The notes beneath the pieces were generated by a model. That model had not been told where the DNA came from. It did no database searches and worked only from the letters and a program-made list of their open reading frames with translations. From positions 1 to 64,000 of the forward strand of contig JAPKZB010000055.1 in the NCBI GenBank assembly GCA_026393985.1: DNA of 64,000 bases, in the 5' to 3' direction. Source of the stretch: Acidobacteriota bacterium (GTDB taxonomy: Bacteria; Acidobacteriota; Terriglobia; Bryobacterales; Bryobacteraceae). How positions within the stretch are numbered: position 1 is the first letter of the stretch; each line of letters begins with the position of its first letter. The position numbers and the translations under genes are program-made. Of the stretch, positions 325 through 52,514 are shown piece by piece.

Positions 325-381
325 CTAGCTCACCCAGCCGGCGAGGGAGATCAACAGGAAGCGGAACAGGTCCAGGGCCTT
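325..381 (-). pseudogene. Transposase/integrase N-terminal remnant
   Basis: The minus-strand frame reads DLFRFLLISLAGWV and then hits TAG at 325-327. From memory this hydrophobic stretch matches the extreme N-terminus of rve-type (integrase core) transposases common in Acidobacteria, where it is followed by a Gln-rich helix. Here nothing of the rest remains, and a CTG stands where an ATG would be expected. I read it as the broken end of an insertion sequence. It is very short, so chance similarity cannot be excluded. Confidence 0.3.
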
Positions 382-568
382 TGACCCCGGGTCATCTCAT
401 GATCGACAACGCCAGGGATTATCTCCCACTGTTTCAGATAGATCGAGTTTCGCGGGGCCCGCTCGGATTTGTGTGCGGTCGCAATTCGGGGCACGAGCCC
501 CGGCGTGAAGGTCAGCAAGATAGCTGGCTTTTTCTGCCGACGCTGATATTGAATTAACAGGATTGGCG
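382..568. other. Intergenic stretch, nothing recognised
   Basis: Between the transposase scrap and the stop codon of the glycosyltransferase I see no convincing gene, hairpin or repeat. The GC content is lower than in the flanking genes, which fits non-coding or decayed DNA. Confidence 0.4.
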
Positions 569-1324
569 CTAGCGCGACCGGTAGAGCCGGCACAACTGCA
601 CGAACGTGGTCGCCAGCGATTTCACCCGGAAGAACTGCGACCGCCCGTGCAGGCGGGGATAGTGACGCACCGGCAGTTCCACCACCTCCATCCCCGAACG
701 TTCGAGCAGCTTCACCAACTCCACGCAAATCGTCCCGCTCGACGAGCGCAGTGGCCTCTGCTCCAGCAGCGAGCGGCGGAAGACGCGGAAGTCGCAATCG
801 ATATCGCGCAGTCGGACACGGAATAAAAAGCGAGCAAACTGGTTATACACCGCCCCAATCACCTTCCGGTGCCAAGGATCCTGCCGGGCGATCTTGTAGC
901 CGTTCACCAGCCCCACCCCCGGCCCCACCACCTCAAGCAGCGGACCCAGATCCCCCACATCGTACTGCCCGTCTCCATCCGTATAGAAGATGAAGTCCTT
1001 GGTCGCGGCGGCAAACCCCGTGCGCAGCGCACCCCCATATCCCCGGTTCTCCGGATGAGTGATCACCCGCAGGAGCGGACCATACTGCTCCTGCAACTGT
1101 GCCAAAACTTCGCCCGTATTGTCCGCGCTACCGTCGTTGACCACAATCACTTCAAAATCGTCCACCAACTCGCCCAACACGTAAAAGGCTTTGCCGATCA
1201 GGGCAGGAAGCGAGGGCGCGTCATTATAAGCGGGGAAAAACGCACTTACGCCGTGCGCGAAACGTCGCGGGTTCGGATTGATCACGAGCGGGCGAACAGT
1301 CTCAGGCTTCAGCGCAAAGGACAT
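569..1324 (-). CDS. Family 2 glycosyltransferase (dolichol-phosphate mannosyltransferase-like)
   Basis: A GT-A fold transferase of 251 residues, probably transferring a sugar from a nucleotide sugar to a lipid phosphate or polysaccharide precursor at the inner membrane face. FFPAYNDA starts the Rossmann-like part at about residue 29, DGSADNT at 64-70 is the nucleotide-binding loop, and DGDGQYD at 116-122 holds the metal-binding DXD. DIDCDFRVFRR in the C-terminal half is typical of DPM1/DPG-like members. No trailing membrane helices are present, so it is the short soluble form. It lies 66 bp downstream of the response-regulator gene on the same strand and could be co-transcribed with it. Acceptor unknown. 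Confidence 0.85.
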   Translation of the reverse strand: MSFALKPETVRPLVINPNPRRFAHGVSAFFPAYNDAPSLPALIGKAFYVLGELVDDFEVIVVNDGSADNTGEVLAQLQEQYGPLLRVITHPENRGYGGALRTGFAAATKDFIFYTDGDGQYDVGDLGPLLEVVGPGVGLVNGYKIARQDPWHRKVIGAVYNQFARFLFRVRLRDIDCDFRVFRRSLLEQRPLRSSSGTICVELVKLLERSGMEVVELPVRHYPRLHGRSQFFRVKSLATTFVQLCRLYRSR

Positions 1325-1390
1325 CCCATAACGATAACGAACGAAAGGTTACGCCGTCTATACTGCTTTTTCTGTAAAGAAATATTAAAC

Positions 1391-2026
1391 TCACGACACG
1401 ATCCCGCGCCGTACGGCGCTCAGCACTAGTTCGGCGGCGCTCCGTACCCCCATCTTCTCCATCACTCTGGCCCGATGGGTTTCGACGGTGTGCAAACTGA
1501 GCCCCAGTTGATAGGCGATCTCTTTGTTGCTATTTCCCTCGGCCAGAAGTTGATAGATGTGACGCTCCCGGTCTGTTAGTCGCTCATACCGGTCATCCAC
1601 CGGGTCCTCCGGCTTGCGGAGGCGAAGAAAACGATCGACCTCGGGACTGAAAAAACGGCGTCCACGGCGAACCTCAAGAATCGCGGTGATCAGTTCCTCT
1701 TCCACGCAGTCCTTTAAAACGTAGCCACTGGCCCCTTCCCGTACCGCCCGGAGCACGTAGCGCTCATCGGCATGCATGCTGAGCATCACTACGGCCAGCC
1801 GCGGAAAGCTGCGGCGCAGTTGGGTTAAAGCCTCCAGTCCGTTCAGACTCTTCATTCCGACGTCGAGCAGCACGAGATCCAGTCCGTGGGTGTGGGCCAG
1901 CGTCACCGCTTCGACACCGCTGCTCGCTTCGGCCACAACCTGCAAGCCCGGATGAGTCTCCAGGATGCGGCGTAACCCCTGGCGAACCAGCGCATGATCA
2001 TCAGCCAGCAGGATGCGATGCAACAT
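1391..2026 (-). CDS. NarL/LuxR-family response regulator
   Basis: DNA-binding response regulator of 211 residues. The receiver domain has the acidic pair at residues 9-10, the phospho-acceptor Asp55 in LVLLDVGM and the conserved Lys105 in GYVLKD. A LuxR-type helix-turn-helix occupies about residues 147-205, with LTDRERHIYQLLAEG and the recognition helix around HTVETHRARVMEKMGV. Its ATG overlaps the stop of the kinase gene by one base (TGATG), so the two are translationally coupled and form a cognate pair. Targets are unknown; the adjacent glycosyltransferase is one candidate. Confidence 0.92.
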   Translation of the reverse strand: MLHRILLADDHALVRQGLRRILETHPGLQVVAEASSGVEAVTLAHTHGLDLVLLDVGMKSLNGLEALTQLRRSFPRLAVVMLSMHADERYVLRAVREGASGYVLKDCVEEELITAILEVRRGRRFFSPEVDRFLRLRKPEDPVDDRYERLTDRERHIYQLLAEGNSNKEIAYQLGLSLHTVETHRARVMEKMGVRSAAELVLSAVRRGIVS

Positions 2027-3336
2027 CAGGAGTAGGTCTCCGAGGGGTGGGTCTTTTCCACCGGGATCTGCACCAGAATGCGGGCCCCCGTTCCGGGCCG
2101 CGACTCCACCAACACTGTCCCGCCGAGCTTTTGCGCCCGCTCTTTTATTCCGAGAATGCCCGTACCCTGCCTAGGAAGCCCACGGTCGCTCAAGGAGAAT
2201 CCCACCCCGTCGTCGAGCACCTCTAACTGCAACCGCTCTCCCTCCTGACCGAGAATGACGCGCACATTCGACGCCCCCGAGTACTTCTCGCAGTTATGCA
2301 ACGCCTCCTGCGCAATGCGGAAAACGCAGGTTTTCGCCTCATCCGAAAGATCTTCGCCAACCTCGGCACCGGAAAACTCGGTCCGGATGCCGGACCGCCG
2401 GCCGAAGTCCTCCAACTGCCACTGCAGCGCCGCACCCAGCCCCAGATCGTCGAGCAGGCTCGGCCGAAGCAGCAACGAGATGTCCCGCACCATGCGAAGG
2501 GTGCGTTCGGCGAGCTCGCGGGCGCGGATGAGCCGGGTGCGCGCTTCACCAACCGCCAACAACGACATCGCGTGCGAGATCTCCATCCGCAAAGCCGTCA
2601 ACGACTGCCCCACTTCGTCATGGAGCTCGCGCGACAACGAGCGCCGCTCTTCCTCCTGAATCTCCAGCAACCGCGCCGAAAGCCGCTCTAACTCCCGCGA
2701 ATGAATCTGGCGCTCGCTCTCGTTCCGGCTCGCAATCCGCAGACTCAGGAACGCCACCGCCAAGCCGACCGTCAGCGAGGCTCCCAGCAGAAAAACCAAC
2801 GTACGCGATGCCTCGGAGCGTTCGGCCAGAAAGCGATCTTGCGCCTCCATCAGTTCCTTGCGCCCCTGATTGCGGAACTCCTCAATCAAAGAAAGCGCCG
2901 AAAGCCGCCGGGGAACCAGGACCTCCGTGATGTAGGATCGCGGCTGACCAGGCGCCGCGCGCAGTTCCCGCAGCCAGACCTGAAACTCAGCATCCACCCG
3001 CAGCGCCCCCATGAGCTCCTCATCCAGGTGCCGGAGTTTCCCCAAAGCAAGGTTGCCTTGGCCTTCCAAATCGCCCAGAGAGAGCGAAAGCTGTTCCCGC
3101 CCGGCCGCGTTGGGCGAAATGAAATAGTCACGCGAGGCAATTCCGGCCACCCAGATCACCCGTCGAAACGCGGCAACCGCGTCTTCTATGGCCACAAACC
3201 GATGATAAGCGGCCTGCTGCGCCGCCCCGCCCGCCGCTTGCAACTGCAGAGCCTCCCACGCCGAAGCCGCCAGCAGGATCAGGATCGCGGCAAAGCCGCC
3301 GCCGAGGACATGCAAGCTATGGAACGACCGTTTCAT
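2026..3336 (-). CDS. Membrane sensor histidine kinase, HisKA_3 (NarX/DegS) class
   Basis: Sensor kinase of 436 residues partnering the NarL-type regulator that it overlaps by one base. A first membrane helix lies at about residues 8-28, followed by a roughly 150-residue extracytoplasmic helical region (CHASE3-like in look) and a second helix near 180-203. The dimerisation/phosphorylation box is LSRELHDEVGQSL, His being the phospho-site. The ATPase domain ends with DDGVGF and GTGILGIKERAQKLGG. I chose the ATG at 3334-3336 over a TTG two codons upstream. Two direct 10-bp repeats (3346-3355, 3358-3367) lie just upstream and may bind a regulator. Confidence 0.9.
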   Translation of the reverse strand: MKRSFHSLHVLGGGFAAILILLAASAWEALQLQAAGGAAQQAAYHRFVAIEDAVAAFRRVIWVAGIASRDYFISPNAAGREQLSLSLGDLEGQGNLALGKLRHLDEELMGALRVDAEFQVWLRELRAAPGQPRSYITEVLVPRRLSALSLIEEFRNQGRKELMEAQDRFLAERSEASRTLVFLLGASLTVGLAVAFLSLRIASRNESERQIHSRELERLSARLLEIQEEERRSLSRELHDEVGQSLTALRMEISHAMSLLAVGEARTRLIRARELAERTLRMVRDISLLLRPSLLDDLGLGAALQWQLEDFGRRSGIRTEFSGAEVGEDLSDEAKTCVFRIAQEALHNCEKYSGASNVRVILGQEGERLQLEVLDDGVGFSLSDRGLPRQGTGILGIKERAQKLGGTVLVESRPGTGARILVQIPVEKTHPSETYS

Positions 3337-5444: not shown

Positions 5445-6537
5445 AGTGCACCACCATCCAGCCGGTCAGCGCCGTGAAAATCGTCCCGCCCATCCCGTTG
5501 CCAAAGGCGAGTAAGCCGGCCACCGTACCCACCACCTCCCGCGGGTAGATGTCGTTGGTCAGAGTTGCCTGATTGGTCTTCCATCCCATGTGCGCAAACG
5601 TGACGATGCAAATCAAGGCGAGCGATACCGTCCGGCTCTCGACAAACCCCACGGCCATCGAAAGCGGCATCAACGCAGCAAAAGGAAGCATCCACGCCCG
5701 GCGGGCCTCCACCGGACTCCAACCGCGGCGAATCAACTGACCGGAGAGCCATCCGCCCGCCAGGCTGCCCGCGTCCGCCGTCAGATACGGTACCCAGGCC
5801 AGCATGCCCATCTCCGCCATCGTGAAGCCGCGCTGGTCCACCAGGTACTTGGGCAGCCAAAACAGATAAAACCACCACACGGGGTCGGAGAAAAAACGAG
5901 CCGCCAATAAACCCCACGTCTGCCGGTAACGCAACATCTCGGTCCATTGCCGCCGCGGACCTTCCGGTAGCGGCAGCGCCTCCGCGCGCCGGGTGACCAG
6001 CAACCAGGGAATCAGCCAGAACAGCCCCAGGGCGCCCGTCGCCAGAAACGCCATCCGCCAGCCGTAATGAGACGCCAGCACCGTCACCATCGGCGGGGCC
6101 ACCACGGCGCCTACGCTCGCCCCGGCCTGGATCAATCCATTGATAAACGCCCGGTCCTTGGGCGCGTACCACTCCGAGACGCCCTTGAACGCCGCCATGA
6201 AGTTGCCGCTCTCCCCGGCGCCCAGCAGGAACCGGAAAGCGCCCAGCGACCATGGCCCCCGCACCAAGGCGTGCAGGCTGTTGGCCGCGCTCCACCAGAC
6301 CATGAACAAACCCAACGAAAAGCGCGTACCCCACCGGTCGACAAGAAACCCCGACCCGGCGTACATCAATGTGTAAGCGGCCAGAAACGCCGTCAGAATG
6401 TTCGAGTACTGCTGGTCGGAGATGCCCAGCTCTTTGGTCAGCGTCGGCGCCAGGACGGACAACGTCTGCCGGTCGATGTAGTTGATCACCGTCGACAGAA
6501 ACAGCAGGGTCGCAACGCCCCAGTGCCACGAAGACAT
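5332..6537 (-). CDS. MFS sugar-acid transporter (hexuronate/ExuT-like)
   Basis: Inner-membrane major facilitator of 401 residues with about 12 hydrophobic helices, resembling the anion:cation symporter (ACS) family. The N-terminus has the signature INYIDRQTLSVLAPTL, as in ExuT and galactonate carriers, and the loop 2-3 signature reads GFLVDRWGTRFSLG. It follows the aldolase gene by 2 bp on the same strand, so both are surely one transcript. Substrate is inferred from neighbours to be a uronate or aldonate. Its last 113 bp overlap the convergent GntR gene. Confidence 0.87.
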   Translation of the reverse strand: MSSWHWGVATLLFLSTVINYIDRQTLSVLAPTLTKELGISDQQYSNILTAFLAAYTLMYAGSGFLVDRWGTRFSLGLFMVWWSAANSLHALVRGPWSLGAFRFLLGAGESGNFMAAFKGVSEWYAPKDRAFINGLIQAGASVGAVVAPPMVTVLASHYGWRMAFLATGALGLFWLIPWLLVTRRAEALPLPEGPRRQWTEMLRYRQTWGLLAARFFSDPVWWFYLFWLPKYLVDQRGFTMAEMGMLAWVPYLTADAGSLAGGWLSGQLIRRGWSPVEARRAWMLPFAALMPLSMAVGFVESRTVSLALICIVTFAHMGWKTNQATLTNDIYPREVVGTVAGLLAFGNGMGGTIFTALTGWMVVHFSYASVFVLMGLLHPISYLIVRWLVRTPLQTTQSSHP

Positions 6538-10228: not shown

Positions 10229-10375
10229 GAAAAAAAGTTCTCGCCGGGAATTTACTTGCCTGCCCGTCCCCGCAATGATACGGTCAAAAAGAACGTGGAT
10301 TGATTTAGGCCTCGCACCCGCTGCCAGCCCGACAAATTGCAACCACGCTAAAAAGTGCTAAAGGAGTTTTGCCGC

Positions 10376-46188: not shown

Positions 46189-46264
<76 letters not shown>

Positions 46265-46271
46265 CATTTTC

Positions 46272-46297
46272 AAAGCGACCCAACCGGGTCGCTTTTT
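46272..46297 (+). terminator. Intrinsic terminator after tRNA-Phe
   Basis: AAAGCGACCC (46272-46281) pairs perfectly with GGGTCGCTTT (46286-46295) around loop AACC, and further Ts follow. It lies 7 bp after the tRNA, so it ends the tRNA transcript (and any fumA read-through). Confidence 0.9.
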
Positions 46298-46329
46298 CAT
46301 TTCCCGGGCCTGCTATGCTGAACGCGAGT

Positions 46330-47565
46330 ATGAACCGTAGAGCATTCTTCCAGGCCTGCCTCAGCGCCGGCGCCGCTTCCTGGGCATCCCGCGCCGACGC
46401 CCTCGGCCTCCCCAAAGCCAAGATCACCCGCATCCGTTACTACAAAACCCCCACCGACGCCGCCGGCCGCCCCAACACCCGCCAGCCCCTCTTCAACCAA
46501 AGCACCAACGTCGTCCTCGTCGAAACCGACACGGGCCTCATCGGCGTTGGCGAAGGCGGCGCCCCCGACGTCATGGAACAGTGCGCCGGCCTCCTCATCG
46601 GCCAGGACCCCTTCCGCACCGACCGCCTCTGGCAGTCCATGTTCCGGTCGTACTTCTACCCCGCCGGCCGCGAAAAGGTCCATGCCCTCGGCGCCCTCGA
46701 CGTCGCCCTCTGGGACCTCAAAGCCAAAGCCCTCGGCGTCCCCCTCTACCAGCTCCTCGGTGGCCAGTCCCGCGACTACGTCGAATGCTACTCCACCGGC
46801 TACCCCGCCCAGGGCACGCCGAAAGAGGTCGCTAAAGCCTGCATCGACGCCGGCTTCCGCGCCTACCGCATCTCCACCGACACGCGCGGCCAGGTCATGG
46901 ACCGCTTTGAAACCGTCAACCGCGTGGCCGCCCTCTGCGAACAGGTCCGCGAAGGCGTCGGCCGCGATGGCGGCTGGTGCATCGACTTCCACACCGAACT
47001 CGACTTCCCCGATGCCGTCACCCTCGCCAACAAAATCGAACCCCTGCGCCCCTACTTCGTCGAAGACCTCGTCCGCAGCGAAAACCCCGGCGTCTATCGC
47101 AAACTCCGCGGCCAGGTCCGCGTCCCCATCGCCGTCGGCGAACAGTTCGGCCCCAAGTGGGAATGGAACGAGCTGATTGAAAACCACCTCATCGACTACG
47201 CCCGCGCCACCATCCCCAACGTCGGTGGCATCACCGAGTTCCAAAAGATCGCCGCGATGTGCGAAACCCACTACGTCGGTCTCGTCCCCCACTTCACCGG
47301 CCCCATCTCGGAAGCCGCTATGGTCCACTGCTGCGCCGTCTTCTCCGGCCCCGCGCTGATGGAAATGGTGATGGGCGGCACCCGTCCGTGGCCCTACCTG
47401 AAGACCCACTACGACCTTCGCAACGGCAAGCTCTGGCCCAACGAACGCCTCGGCCTCGGCGTCGAAGTGGACACCTCGCAACTCCAGCAGATCGGCAACT
47501 ACACCGAGGCCTATCAGCTCACCCCCATGCTGCGCCGGCCCGATGGCTCGTTAACGAACTGGTAG
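46330..47565 (+). CDS. Exported mandelate racemase/galactonate dehydratase-like enzyme
   Basis: 411 residues of the enolase superfamily with an N-terminal Tat-like signal (MNRRAFFQACLSAGAASWA), suggesting action in the periplasm. Metal ligands: Asp in WCIDFHTELDF, Glu in FVEDLVRSE, Glu in IAVGEQFG; the catalytic His is in VGLVPHFTGP, matching DgoD-type aldonate dehydratases. The ATG at 46330 is chosen as it begins the signal; one at 46315 is possible. A nitrilase-like hydrolase gene follows after 10 bp. Product likely a 2-keto-3-deoxy acid. Confidence 0.86.
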   Translation: MNRRAFFQACLSAGAASWASRADALGLPKAKITRIRYYKTPTDAAGRPNTRQPLFNQSTNVVLVETDTGLIGVGEGGAPDVMEQCAGLLIGQDPFRTDRLWQSMFRSYFYPAGREKVHALGALDVALWDLKAKALGVPLYQLLGGQSRDYVECYSTGYPAQGTPKEVAKACIDAGFRAYRISTDTRGQVMDRFETVNRVAALCEQVREGVGRDGGWCIDFHTELDFPDAVTLANKIEPLRPYFVEDLVRSENPGVYRKLRGQVRVPIAVGEQFGPKWEWNELIENHLIDYARATIPNVGGITEFQKIAAMCETHYVGLVPHFTGPISEAAMVHCCAVFSGPALMEMVMGGTRPWPYLKTHYDLRNGKLWPNERLGLGVEVDTSQLQQIGNYTEAYQLTPMLRRPDGSLTNW

Positions 47566-49934: not shown

Positions 49935-51080
49935 ATGGAGCGCAGAACCTTCCTCGGCGGCTCGCTGCTGGCCTATGCGCCGGCCAGTCAGATCCGCCTC
50001 GGCGTCATCGGCAGCGGCAGCCGCGGCACCTTCGTCATGGGCGTTTTTCAGAAAGATCCCGCCCTCGCCGTCGGCGCCATCTCCGACGTCTACGAACCCA
50101 ACCTCGAACGCGCCCTCTCCCTGGCCAAAGGCGCCAAAGCCTATCGGGACTACCGCGACCTCCTCGCCGACCGCACCATCGACGCCGTCCTCATCGCCAC
50201 CCCCGAGCACTGGCACCACCGCATGATCCTCGACGCCCTCGCCGCCGGCAAGGACGTCTATGTCGAAAAGCCGCTCTGCCGCACCCCACAGGAGGCCCGC
50301 GAACTCGTCGAAGCCGAAAAACGATCGAAGCAGATCATCCAGGTCGGCATGCAGCGCCGCTCCTACGACCTCTACCAGGACGCCCGCGGCGTCGTCGCCG
50401 CCGGCACCCTCGGCCACGTCCGCATGGTGCGTAGCTGGTGGCTCAACAACCACCTGAACGCCGTCCCCGCCACCAAACTCGACGGCAAGCTCGACTGGGA
50501 GGCTTGGCAGGGCCCCGCCGAACGGCGCCCCTTCGACGCCAACCGCTTCCGCGCCTGGCGCTTCTACCAGGACTACGCCGGCGGCATCGTCGCCGACCAG
50601 GGCGCCCACGCCTTCGACGGCATCCAGATGATCCTGGGCGCCGGCTTCGTCCGCGCCGTCACCGCCGCCGCCCTCCCGCCCCTGCGCCCCGGCGTCGACC
50701 AGCCCGACTGCGTCGTCGTCAGCGCCGAGTACCCCGAAGGCTTCCTGGCCACCTTCACCGTCAACTACGCCGCCATGAAGTACCAGAGCCGCAACGACCA
50801 GTTGAACCAAGCCGACGGCGATAAAGCCCGCCTCGACATCGGCCGCGAGACCTTCCGCGTCCTCCCCGCCGGCGACGAGGACATGCCGATTCTCGAACGC
50901 AAAAGCGCCCGCGGCTTCGGCTGGGCCACCGACCTGCACGTGCAAAACTTCCTCGCCTGCGTCCGTACCCGCCAGCGCCCCACCGCGCCCATGGCCCTGG
51001 GCGCGCAGGCGGCGCTCGTCGTCCAACTGGCCAACCAATCCCTCCGCGAAGGCCGCCGCATCAAAAACACCACTTTTTAG
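49935..51080 (+). CDS. Exported Gfo/Idh/MocA family oxidoreductase
   Basis: 381 residues. A short N-terminal MERRTFLGGSLLAYAP resembles a Tat signal; then the Rossmann motif IRLGVIGSGSRG, IDAVLIATPEHWHHRM and the catalytic-lysine motif VYVEKPLCRTPQEAREL. C-terminal beta sheet domain includes GGIVADQGAHAFDGI. Exported members are common in Acidobacteria and Planctomycetes and act on sugars or glycosides with tightly bound NAD(P). Forms a divergent pair with the dehydrogenase. Confidence 0.87.
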   Translation: MERRTFLGGSLLAYAPASQIRLGVIGSGSRGTFVMGVFQKDPALAVGAISDVYEPNLERALSLAKGAKAYRDYRDLLADRTIDAVLIATPEHWHHRMILDALAAGKDVYVEKPLCRTPQEARELVEAEKRSKQIIQVGMQRRSYDLYQDARGVVAAGTLGHVRMVRSWWLNNHLNAVPATKLDGKLDWEAWQGPAERRPFDANRFRAWRFYQDYAGGIVADQGAHAFDGIQMILGAGFVRAVTAAALPPLRPGVDQPDCVVVSAEYPEGFLATFTVNYAAMKYQSRNDQLNQADGDKARLDIGRETFRVLPAGDEDMPILERKSARGFGWATDLHVQNFLACVRTRQRPTAPMALGAQAALVVQLANQSLREGRRIKNTTF

Positions 51081-51083
51081 TGG

Positions 51084-51112
51084 TTGAAAATCGCCCCGCT
51101 TCCCCGTATTCT
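51084..51112 (+). promoter_or_regulatory. Sigma70-type promoter of the candidate ncRNA
   Basis: TTGAAA at 51084-51089 and TATTCT at 51107-51112 are separated by exactly 17 bp, one of the best housekeeping-type promoters in the window. Transcription would begin near 51118-51120, precisely where the first arm of a long RNA stem begins. Confidence 0.65.
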
Positions 51113-51117
51113 GTAGT

Positions 51118-51276
51118 AGTCGAAAGCAAGCGCCTACGACCATTGCTGGTTACGCCCGGCTGTCCGGACGCGTGAGGCTGGTCTACGGCGCAGGCAGTCT
51201 CTGTTACTGCGTTCCGCACCGCGCCTTGCTCTCGACTCCATGGAAACGGCTGTAAACCGTCGGGTTCGAAACCCAT
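51118..51276 (+). ncRNA. Candidate structured RNA with tRNA-like arms upstream of slipin
   Basis: A closing stem pairs 51118-51133 with 51221-51237 (16 pairs, one mismatch, one bulge), beginning at the predicted transcription start. Inside are GACCA/TGGTC (51138-51142 with 51179-51183) enclosing an ACGCCCGG/CCGGacGCGT hairpin, and a GCAGT/ACTGC hairpin (about 51195-51209). Just after comes ACGG-CTGTAAA-CCGT (51246-51260), like a tRNA-Tyr anticodon arm with GUA, and GGG-TTCGAAA-CCC (51262-51274), a textbook T-arm loop. No acceptor stem or CCA is seen, so it is not a tRNA. Bacterial Y RNAs combine a long stem with a tRNA mimic; relation to these is inference. Confidence 0.5.
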
Positions 51277-51295
51277 CTCTGTTCACCCCTTAACC

Positions 51296-51398
51296 CCGCT
51301 TGCGGATGGTCGAGCAACCTGCGTGGCCGCTGAAACTGCCGGATGGCGGAGGCCGGCTCTGGCGCTCACCCTTGCCAAACCTGCTGTCCCGCAAGCGG
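51296..51398 (+). promoter_or_regulatory. Second folded segment in the slipin leader
   Basis: CCGCTTGCGG (51296-51305) and its exact complement (51389-51398) enclose 83 bases that hold further dyads (GCCGG/CCGGC). The closing stem ends 15 bases before the GGAGGA ribosome site (51413-51418) of slipin. It may be a second small RNA or a control element of slipin translation. Confidence 0.4.
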
Positions 51399-51425
51399 AC
51401 CCTACCTGTTCTGGAGGACACTCCC

Positions 51426-52514
51426 ATGCCCCGCATTCGCTACACCATCGGCGACGCCGAGCGCGCGGTCATCTCGCGCGGCGGCCGCTTTCTCACCATC
51501 GCCGGACCGGGCACCCACTACGGGCGCTTCGTCACCGTCGAAACCCACTCCACGCTCAACGCCGCCTTCTCCTCCCCCTGGGCGGAAATCCTCTGGCGCA
51601 CCCGCCCCGATGTCGTCGCCCGCCACTTTGTCCCGGTGGAAACCGCCGAGCGGCAGTTAGCGCTTGTCCGCGTCCACAGTCGCCTCGAAGCGATCGTCGG
51701 CCCCGGCCAGCGGCAGCTGTTCTGGCAGCCCGCCACGGTCGAGATGGTCGACCTCGACGCGGCGCCGGAGGTGCCCACCGCCCTGTTCACCGCGGTCGAA
51801 CGCACCAACGCCGCCGCCCTCAACGTCTACGAGGTTGCCGCCGGCATGGCCGGCGTCCTGTGCCGCGATGGCCGCTTCGTCCGCGTCCTCGAACCCGGCC
51901 GCTACGGCTTCTGGCAGGCGGCCGCCCCGGTCGCCATCACGCTGATCGACCTGCGCCGGCAGATGCTCGAAGTCCCCGGCCAGGAGATCCTCACCCGCGA
52001 CAAAGTCTCCCTCCGCGTCAACATCCTGGCCGAGTACCGGGTCGCCGACCCCGCCACCGCCGCCATCGCCGTCCAAAACTACGGCGAAACCCTCTACCGC
52101 CTGCTGCAACTCGCCGTCCGCTCCAGCCTCGGCAAACGCTCGCTCGACGAGGTGTTGGCCGACAAGGTCGACATCGAACCCGAATCCGCTGCCGCCGTCC
52201 GGCGCGAGATGGCGGCCCTCGGCGTCGAGCTGACCAACATCGCCTTCAAGGACATCATCCTGCCCGGCGAAATCCGCGGCATCCTCAACCAGGTCGTCGC
52301 CGCCGAAAAGCAGGCGCAGGCCAACCTCATCCGCCGCCGCGAGGAGACCGCTGCCACCCGGTCCCTCCTCAACACGGCGAAACTCATGGAAGACAACCCG
52401 ACCCTGATTCGTCTCAAGGAGTTGGAAACCCTCGAACGCCTCACCGAAAAGGTCGGCACCGTCAACGTCCACGGCGGATTCGACGGTTTGCTCAGCAAAC
52501 TGTTACCGTCCTGA
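51426..52514 (+). CDS. Slipin (SPFH/band-7 family), extended form
   Basis: 362 residues, longer than common 250-residue slipins. Three related segments precede the SPFH domain: GGRFLTIAGPGTHY (19-32), SRLEAIVGPGQRQLFW (85-100) and DGRFVRVLEPGRYGFW (148-163). The SPFH part has LIDLRRQMLEVPGQEILTRDKVSLRVN and ends with a coiled coil (AAEKQAQANLIRRREETAATRS) and NPTLIRLKELETLERL. No membrane helix is seen. Extended slipins of this sort are, to my recollection, found near RtcB RNA-repair genes; none is in this window. GGAGGA eight bases upstream supports the ATG at 51426. Confidence 0.87.
   Translation: MPRIRYTIGDAERAVISRGGRFLTIAGPGTHYGRFVTVETHSTLNAAFSSPWAEILWRTRPDVVARHFVPVETAERQLALVRVHSRLEAIVGPGQRQLFWQPATVEMVDLDAAPEVPTALFTAVERTNAAALNVYEVAAGMAGVLCRDGRFVRVLEPGRYGFWQAAAPVAITLIDLRRQMLEVPGQEILTRDKVSLRVNILAEYRVADPATAAIAVQNYGETLYRLLQLAVRSSLGKRSLDEVLADKVDIEPESAAAVRREMAALGVELTNIAFKDIILPGEIRGILNQVVAAEKQAQANLIRRREETAATRSLLNTAKLMEDNPTLIRLKELETLERLTEKVGTVNVHGGFDGLLSKLLPS

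What the first reader, a model, noticed from the sequence alone, without database searches (positions are those of the whole stretch)
51084..51276. Candidate structured non-coding RNA with tRNA-like arms, own promoter, beside an extended slipin
A near-ideal promoter (TTGAAA-17-TATTCT) would start RNA exactly at a 16-bp closing stem (51118-51133 with 51221-51237). Nested hairpins lie inside, and after it stand an anticodon-arm look-alike (loop CTGTAAA, GUA) and a T-arm with loop TTCGAAA. There is no acceptor stem or CCA. Bacterial Y RNAs mix a long stem with a tRNA mimic, and extended slipins are reported near RNA repair genes, so this may be a related but separate tRNA-mimic RNA system in Acidobacteria.
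Basis: partly seen in the sequence, partly recalled or inferred. Interest (0 to 1): 0.85.

Follow-up and report, generated by a model that had tools for sequence, protein, structure and literature searches.

The report
Eroded tRNA-mimic RNA beside extended slipin
In front of a ring-forming protein gene in a soil bacterium lies a conserved folded RNA, a worn-down relative of transfer-RNA look-alikes that sit at the same place in many bacteria, often beside RNA-repair genes, which suggests a partner RNA for sensing or handling damaged RNA.

Summary
Promoter, closing stem and two small hairpins are where stated, and the closing stem and core hairpin covary in relatives. The RNA is longer: a 3' domain (51296-51398) runs to the slipin ribosome-binding site. 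In the same order, 28 of 33 extended-slipin loci with enough upstream sequence carry a genuine tRNA-like fold with a variable anticodon between the same 5' and 3' parts; the five without it, and the window, form one clade that keeps only an anticodon-like and a T-arm-like hairpin. tRNA-likes precede 71 of 80 extended slipins found in the genome collection and none of 20 ordinary SPFH genes. Neighbours elsewhere include RtcB, RtcR, RlaP and PrfH. No Rfam family, Y RNA or tRNA matches the window element. An SPFH/Band-7-linked 'novel tRNA-like molecule' in RNA repair was, as I recall an abstract, proposed in 2016, so this is an eroded variant of a known kind; its genome shows no RtcB or RlaP. Binding to the slipin, induction and processing are inferred. 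The slipin's three tandem SPFH1-like modules allow a vault-like reading.

The parts
51070..51083 (.). palindrome CCACTTTTTAGTGG abutting the -35, candidate operator
   Evidence: kept in all five clade relatives, of which L112 and L113 have a different upstream sequence; CCAC-N5/6-GTGG in 18 of 35 loci against 0.64 in shuffles, though in L128, L130, L136, L142 it lies in a hairpin instead; one exact site CCACNNNNNAGTGGTTGAMA in the own genome
51084..51112 (+). sigma70-type promoter TTGAAA-17-TATTCT
   Evidence: TTGACA in the relatives
51118..51237 (+). 5' domain enclosed by the closing stem (51118-51133 with 51221-51237)
51182..51223 (+). core hairpin shared with the order-wide RNA family
   Evidence: 94.1% of cells paired against 75.5% shuffled, 10 of 12 pairs with double changes over 33 loci, window included
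51246..51260 (+). anticodon-like hairpin, loop CTGTAAA
   Evidence: loop differs in relatives; resembles the CUGNAAA-type hairpin that often follows the tRNA-like elsewhere (by eye)
51262..51274 (+). T-arm-like hairpin GGGTTCGAAACCC
   Evidence: GGGTTCGANNCCC in 4 of 6 clade members
51296..51398 (+). 3' domain, closed by CCGCTTGCGG/CCGCAAGCGG, with GAAACTG at 51332-51338
   Evidence: conserved in five relatives; GAAACTG in 18 of 35 loci against 0.33 in shuffles
51413..51417 (+). ribosome-binding site GGAGG
   Evidence: sequence, conserved
51426..52514 (+). extended slipin gene (Band_7), 362 aa
   Evidence: PF01145 E 2.1e-29 at residues 137-307; model with three N-terminal beta modules

Best explanation
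The RNA (51118 to about 51400, roughly 280 nt) is the cognate structured RNA of an extended-slipin system that deals with damaged RNA. It is made from its own promoter, probably repressed through the CCAC-N6-GTGG palindrome, and read through into the slipin gene; its folded part, whole or cut out, forms an RNP with a soluble ring or cage of the slipin. In most relatives the middle of the RNA is a tRNA mimic with a short acceptor stem and a variable anticodon, suited to attract enzymes that act on tRNAs (anticodon nucleases, repair or processing enzymes) without being charged. In the window's clade that middle has shrunk to an anticodon-like and a T-arm-like hairpin. Shown: conserved and covarying fold, order of the modules, place before extended slipins, repair genes as neighbours in other lineages. 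Inferred: transcription, repression, processing, binding to the slipin, role in RNA damage.
For: Covariation of core and closing stem. A model built only from the window and two near relatives finds the three more distant clade members and same-genus loci that do carry the tRNA-like (L128, L130, L142 at E about 9e-4; core alone in L136, L139). Core model: of 32 genome matches with E<=1e-4, 30 lie roughly 200-600 nt upstream of an extended slipin and 2 at contig ends. tRNA-like: 28 of 33 loci of the order, 71 of 80 loci of the genome collection, 0 of 20 ordinary SPFH loci. tRNA-like helices covary, 14 of 19 pairs. Company: rtcR, tRNA-like, slipin, rtcB in Burkholderia, rtcR and slipin in Citrobacter, slipin and RlaP in E. 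coli, RtcB-cluster protein downstream in 36 of 116 loci.
Against: The window clade fails the tRNA-like model. The window's genome shows no RtcB and no RlaP, and none of the six clade genomes has RtcB, so a repair role here is by analogy. No terminator separates the RNA from the gene, which suits a leader as well. ARAGORN names many of the relatives' tRNA-likes as ordinary tRNAs, so some may be real tRNA genes. No expression or binding data.
Confidence: 0.55

Rival explanations
1. Cis-acting leader: the RNA is the 5' untranslated region of the slipin mRNA and controls that gene only, for instance by letting a tRNA-binding protein, an anticodon nuclease or the slipin itself bind the mimic and change translation or stability.
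For: It ends about 15 nt before the ribosome-binding site, no proper terminator lies between, and in the order it is found 200-600 nt upstream of the slipin.
Against: Several modules, tandem tRNA-likes in some loci and up to 758 nt between tRNA-like and gene are more than a leader needs; the published proposal, as recalled, is of a cognate RNA.
Confidence: 0.3
2. Relic: in this clade the RNA has lost its function with the tRNA mimic and RtcB, and only the slipin is still used.
For: tRNA-like lost, no RtcB in 6 of 6 clade genomes.
Against: Closing stem, core and 3' domain still conserved and covarying within the clade and towards its neighbours.
Confidence: 0.1
3. Chance hairpins or a tRNA fragment left by an integration event.
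For: Lone T-arm; energy of the long stretch not remarkable.
Against: Same place and order in relatives, covariation, single copy in the genome, no plasmid DNA match.
Confidence: 0.02

Closest known systems
SPFH/Band-7-associated 'novel tRNA-like molecule' of RNA-repair systems (Burroughs and Aravind 2016, 10.1093/nar/gkw722; abstract recalled, paper not held)
   Same: Structured RNA before an extended slipin; in relatives a genuine tRNA-like and RNA-repair neighbours
   Different: In the window the tRNA-like fold is lost and no RtcB or RlaP is found in the genome; the conserved 5' core and 3' domain may not have been described (I could not check)
Bacterial Y RNA YrlA (RF02553)
   Same: tRNA mimic combined with a long stem, found in RNA-repair operons (PMC7790460, passages)
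   Different: No match in the window element; stem and mimic lie side by side here; partner is a Band-7 protein; presence of a Ro protein was not tested
Eukaryotic vault: major vault protein and vault RNA
   Same: SPFH fold with beta modules in front, no clear membrane helix; vault RNA has tRNA-like promoter boxes (recalled)
   Different: The first N-terminal module resembles SPFH1 of erlin, prohibitin and HflK more than vault repeats; no vault family by sequence
sX15 sRNA (RF02234)
   Same: Similar closed multi-branch outline over 51119-51241
   Different: 19.1 bits, E 0.57, threshold 55: no relation shown

Membership tests
Slipin-linked tRNA-like RNA | lies directly upstream of an extended slipin on the same strand | tested here: met
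Slipin-linked tRNA-like RNA | tRNA-like fold with D, anticodon and T arms | tested here: not met
   best match of model R1 is the T-arm alone, 7.9 bits; no match in L002-L006 either. Hence filed as an eroded relative, not as a tRNA-like RNA
Slipin-linked tRNA-like RNA | 5' core hairpin and closing stem shared with the family | tested here: met
   R2 was built with the window in it, R3 was not built with the loci L114-L116, L128, L130, L136, L139, L142 that it finds
Slipin-linked tRNA-like RNA | RNA-repair enzymes in the same genome | tested here: inconclusive
   no RtcB, no RlaP; an RtcR-domain protein at 38.6 bits elsewhere in the genome; an RNA_ligase-domain match at 34.1 bits, not followed up
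Bacterial Y RNA (YrlA) | match to the Rfam model | tested here: not met
   no match at E up to 5 in 51050-51440
Bacterial Y RNA (YrlA) | Ro/Rsr partner gene | not tested
   no search for Ro was made
Functional tRNA | acceptor stem and four-arm fold | tested here: not met
Extended slipin | Band_7 domain with an N-terminal extension instead of a membrane helix | tested here: met
PF01145 at residues 137-307 of 362; beta modules before it; highest 19-residue hydropathy 1.2.
Major vault protein | vault-type N-terminal repeats | tested here: inconclusive
   N-terminal model alone: MVP Z up to 4.6, erlin/prohibitin/HflK Z up to 6.7; whole model MVP Z 9.5-11.0; no Vault family in Pfam at E up to 5

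The most novel reading that the evidence does not exclude
A bacterial vault-like RNP: a soluble SPFH cage, its wall lengthened by tandem SPFH1 modules where canonical SPFH proteins have their membrane anchor, that packages its own tRNA-like RNA, a parallel by descent or convergence to the eukaryotic vault with its tRNA-boxed vault RNA; the variable anticodons would make the RNA bait for tRNA-cutting enzymes.
Probability: 0.12. Interest if true: 0.9.

Novelty: new variant of a known kind. Interest (0 to 1): 0.6.

Why it matters
It gives a defined, covarying RNA for which Rfam 15 has no family, and shows that its constant parts are the 5' core and, in many relatives, the 3' domain, while the tRNA mimic varies in anticodon and can be lost. 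A reduced form stands before a slipin gene that, with its leader, is present in 1621 of 5426 complete E. coli genomes, so what Band-7 proteins and tRNA-like RNAs do in RNA damage can be asked in an easy laboratory species. If the slipin forms a soluble cage around the RNA, it bears on the unsolved role and origin of vaults.

Tried and rejected
Y RNA, tRNA, tmRNA and riboswitch readings: no support from Rfam or ARAGORN for 51050-51440. Integration-site or plasmid origin: single copy in the genome, no plasmid DNA match. sX15 likeness: E 0.57. Vault repeats by sequence: nothing in Pfam or among PDB sequences; in the structure comparison MVP is not among the best matches of the N-terminal part alone. 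A regulon of the operator: one exact site in the own genome, a second with one mismatch not followed up.

The cognate-flank test of the closing stem is positive overall (mean -30.7 against -24.8 kcal/mol, 0 of 20000 permutations), but the window ranks only 15 of 33 and L004 and L005 do worse than the average non-cognate pair; the flanks hold more than the stem. I rely instead, whose alignment is fitted to the structure. L141, of the same genus, was not found by R3 at E<=0.05. Whether the anticodon-like arm of the window derives from the anticodon arm or from the hairpin after the tRNA-like is not resolved. Numbers of RtcB, WYL and PrfH neighbours are BLAST clusters of which one member each was checked by profile. 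Paper searches for slipin, SPFH, Band-7 or extended slipin with tRNA-like, Y RNA, RtcB or RNA repair found no paper on this RNA (one search listed 20 of 1,225); much of the subscription literature is not held.

Full report
What is there. Between an oxidoreductase ORF ending at 51080 and a Band_7 gene starting at 51426 lies a promoter TTGAAA-17-TATTCT that abuts the palindrome CCACTTTTTAGTGG. A start about 7 nt after the -10 falls near 51119, the foot of the closing stem. The stem has 15 pairs with two interruptions. The only + strand terminator-like hit between promoter and gene is the T-arm hairpin itself.

Is it more than chance? Energy is a weak witness: 51114-51241 gives z -2.6, 51110-51300 z -1.23, and the complement of the latter z -3.55. 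Covariation is a better one. A model of the 5' domain from the window and two near relatives (R3) finds the three more distant clade members (36.5-43 bits), three same-genus loci with another type of slipin (L128, L130, L142, E about 9e-4) and the core alone in L136 and L139; 34 sources were given and 11 match at E<=0.05, the three model sequences' loci included. On that alignment, fitted to the structure, the two closing-stem helices are 95.6% and 93.2% paired and 13 of their 14 pairs have changes on both sides; the two inner arms are only about 81% paired. The core hairpin (51182-51223), aligned by sequence over 33 loci, is 94.1% paired against 75.5% in shuffles and at most 45.7% when slid; 10 of 12 pairs have double changes.

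The family in the order. Of 257 genomes of the order 36 hold a long extended-slipin match (E up to 1.3e-90, counted by me). The core model gives 39 matches in 38 genomes at E<=0.01. Of the 32 with E<=1e-4, 30 lie roughly 200-600 nt upstream of an extended slipin (one of these slipins is broken, G026); two (G234:C153, G111:C568) end at contig edges. Of the seven weaker ones three are beside a slipin (G059, G060, G066) and four are not (G086:C43, G104, G195, G206). Three of the 36 genomes have no match (G058, G062, G216). The model was built from many of these loci, so this shows linkage more than independent discovery. Among L112-L146, 33 have enough upstream sequence: 28 carry a tRNA-like and the five without are the window's clade; L118 and L146 are cut. 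The tRNA-like helices are 95.9% paired, 14 of 19 pairs with double changes. The modelled acceptor has five pairs, 87.9% paired; no CCA was seen by eye. 21 of 28 anticodon loops have seven bases, with 16 different triplets; U33 and A37 each in 16 of 21. A hairpin with a loop like CUGNAAA often follows (by eye). GAAACTG in the 3' region occurs in 18 of 35 loci against 0.33 in shuffles.

Beyond the order. With the tRNA-like model R1, 71 of the 80 loci L002-L081 have a match that starts 301-758 nt upstream of the slipin. In Bacteroidetes records some scores are as low as 19.6 bits, true tRNA genes also lie near, and ARAGORN names a good many of the elements as ordinary tRNAs. Without a match: L002-L006 (window clade), L071, L076, L061 (only 62 nt upstream), and L056, which has just a weak overlong one 798-923 nt away. 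Of 20 loci of ordinary SPFH genes from the same genomes none has one at E up to 0.1. The core model gives weak matches just 5' of the tRNA-like in L068, L018, L013 and L029 (E 0.009-0.5). Burkholderia has a tRNA-like of 53.9 bits. In Citrobacter, E. coli and L169, a viral-collection contig, R1 finds nothing, but in the first two a lone T-arm GGGTTCGATTCCC stands in the leader after a sigma54-like TGGCACG site (by eye): a reduced form like that of the window. In E. coli 1621 of 5426 complete genomes cover at least 80% of a leader-plus-slipin query.

Company. Burkholderia: rtcR, tRNA-like, slipin, rtcB. Citrobacter: rtcR, slipin, a nucleotidyltransferase gene (rtcR checked). E. coli: slipin and RlaP, 'RNA repair pathway DNA polymerase beta family'. 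Among 116 loci with neighbours extracted, duplicates included, 36 have a downstream protein of one BLAST cluster whose checked member is RtcB, 21 an upstream protein of a cluster whose checked member has a WYL domain, 10 a protein of a cluster whose checked member is PrfH. In Anabaena a slipin gene and rtcB are both strongly raised when the repressor TrcR is removed (PMC10272220, passages). An RtcR-controlled operon is regulated by damaged tRNAs (PMC7790460, title and passages). In the window's genome no RtcB and no RlaP was found. None of the six clade genomes has RtcB; of the other 30 genomes with a long extended slipin 21 have it (counted by me). The clade is one lineage, so this is one event at most.

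The protein. The AlphaFold2 model (pLDDT 83.5, pTM 0.59) shows three five-stranded modules, the SPFH core and a long helix. The three modules resemble each other more than shuffles do (0 of 500 for each pair). No clear membrane helix: highest 19-residue hydropathy 1.2 in the window protein; 3 of 35 members exceed 1.6. In the N-terminal model the first module matches the SPFH1 part of erlin, prohibitin and HflK (Z up to 6.7) better than vault repeats (Z up to 4.6); Foldseek gives that model no match with E<=0.001. The whole model matches stomatin (Z 14.8) and, at Z 9.5-11.0, the major vault protein, in several entries from residue 4 on. A 2026 paper calls membrane anchoring a unifying feature of SPFH proteins from which the vault stands out, and MVP domains unique to the vault (PMC13100048, passages). 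So the slipin is vault-like in plan, not shown to be a vault relative.

Mechanism. Shown: a conserved, covarying RNA in fixed order before an extended slipin, with a tRNA mimic in most relatives, and RNA-repair genes around it in several groups. Inferred: regulated transcription, an RNP with a slipin ring, attraction of tRNA-acting enzymes by the mimic. A variable anticodon beside mostly constant U33 and A37 fits bait for anticodon-cutting enzymes, but loose constraint would look alike. The strongest rival is a cis-acting leader.

Novelty. As I recall its abstract, Burroughs and Aravind 2016 proposed SPFH/Band-7 modules with a cognate tRNA-like molecule as RNA-repair scaffolds; the paper is not held, and its existence is seen in reference lists. 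The kind is therefore known. Not found in print by the searches made nor in Rfam are the eroded clade, the conserved 5' core and 3' domain, the anticodon variety and the tandem SPFH1 modules.

Noticed in passing
10289-10371: SAM-II riboswitch, 46.8 bits against a threshold of 44.
   Followed up: no
46189-46264: tRNA-Phe gene whose 3' part overlaps a TTG-started ORF 46204-47565; the true start of that gene is probably the later ATG.
   Followed up: no
51300: An in-frame TTG at 51300 would extend the slipin ORF to 404 aa through the conserved 3' RNA domain; relatives and the ribosome-binding site favour the ATG at 51426.
   Followed up: partly
L173 (contig 65 of the own genome), 346-2040 (-) and 1937-3295 (-): A sigma54 activator with a partial RtcR domain (38.6 bits) beside an ORF that looks like an ADP-ribosylglycohydrolase (my reading, not scanned): perhaps another RNA-repair or NAD-linked system in this genome.
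   Followed up: no
L170 5680-6000: E. coli leader before slipin and RlaP: sigma54-like TGGCACG site and a lone T-arm GGGTTCGATTCCC at 5805-5817, with the leader and gene in 1621 of 5426 complete genomes.
   Followed up: partly
L016, L019, L021 and others upstream of the slipin: Two tRNA-likes in tandem; in L016 the first scores 72.1 bits as tRNA in Rfam, so it may be a working or recently captured tRNA.
   Followed up: no
L169: One contig of the viral collection encodes an extended slipin (38% identity) without a tRNA-like match (only 204 bases lie upstream); it may be a mis-sorted bacterial contig.
   Followed up: no
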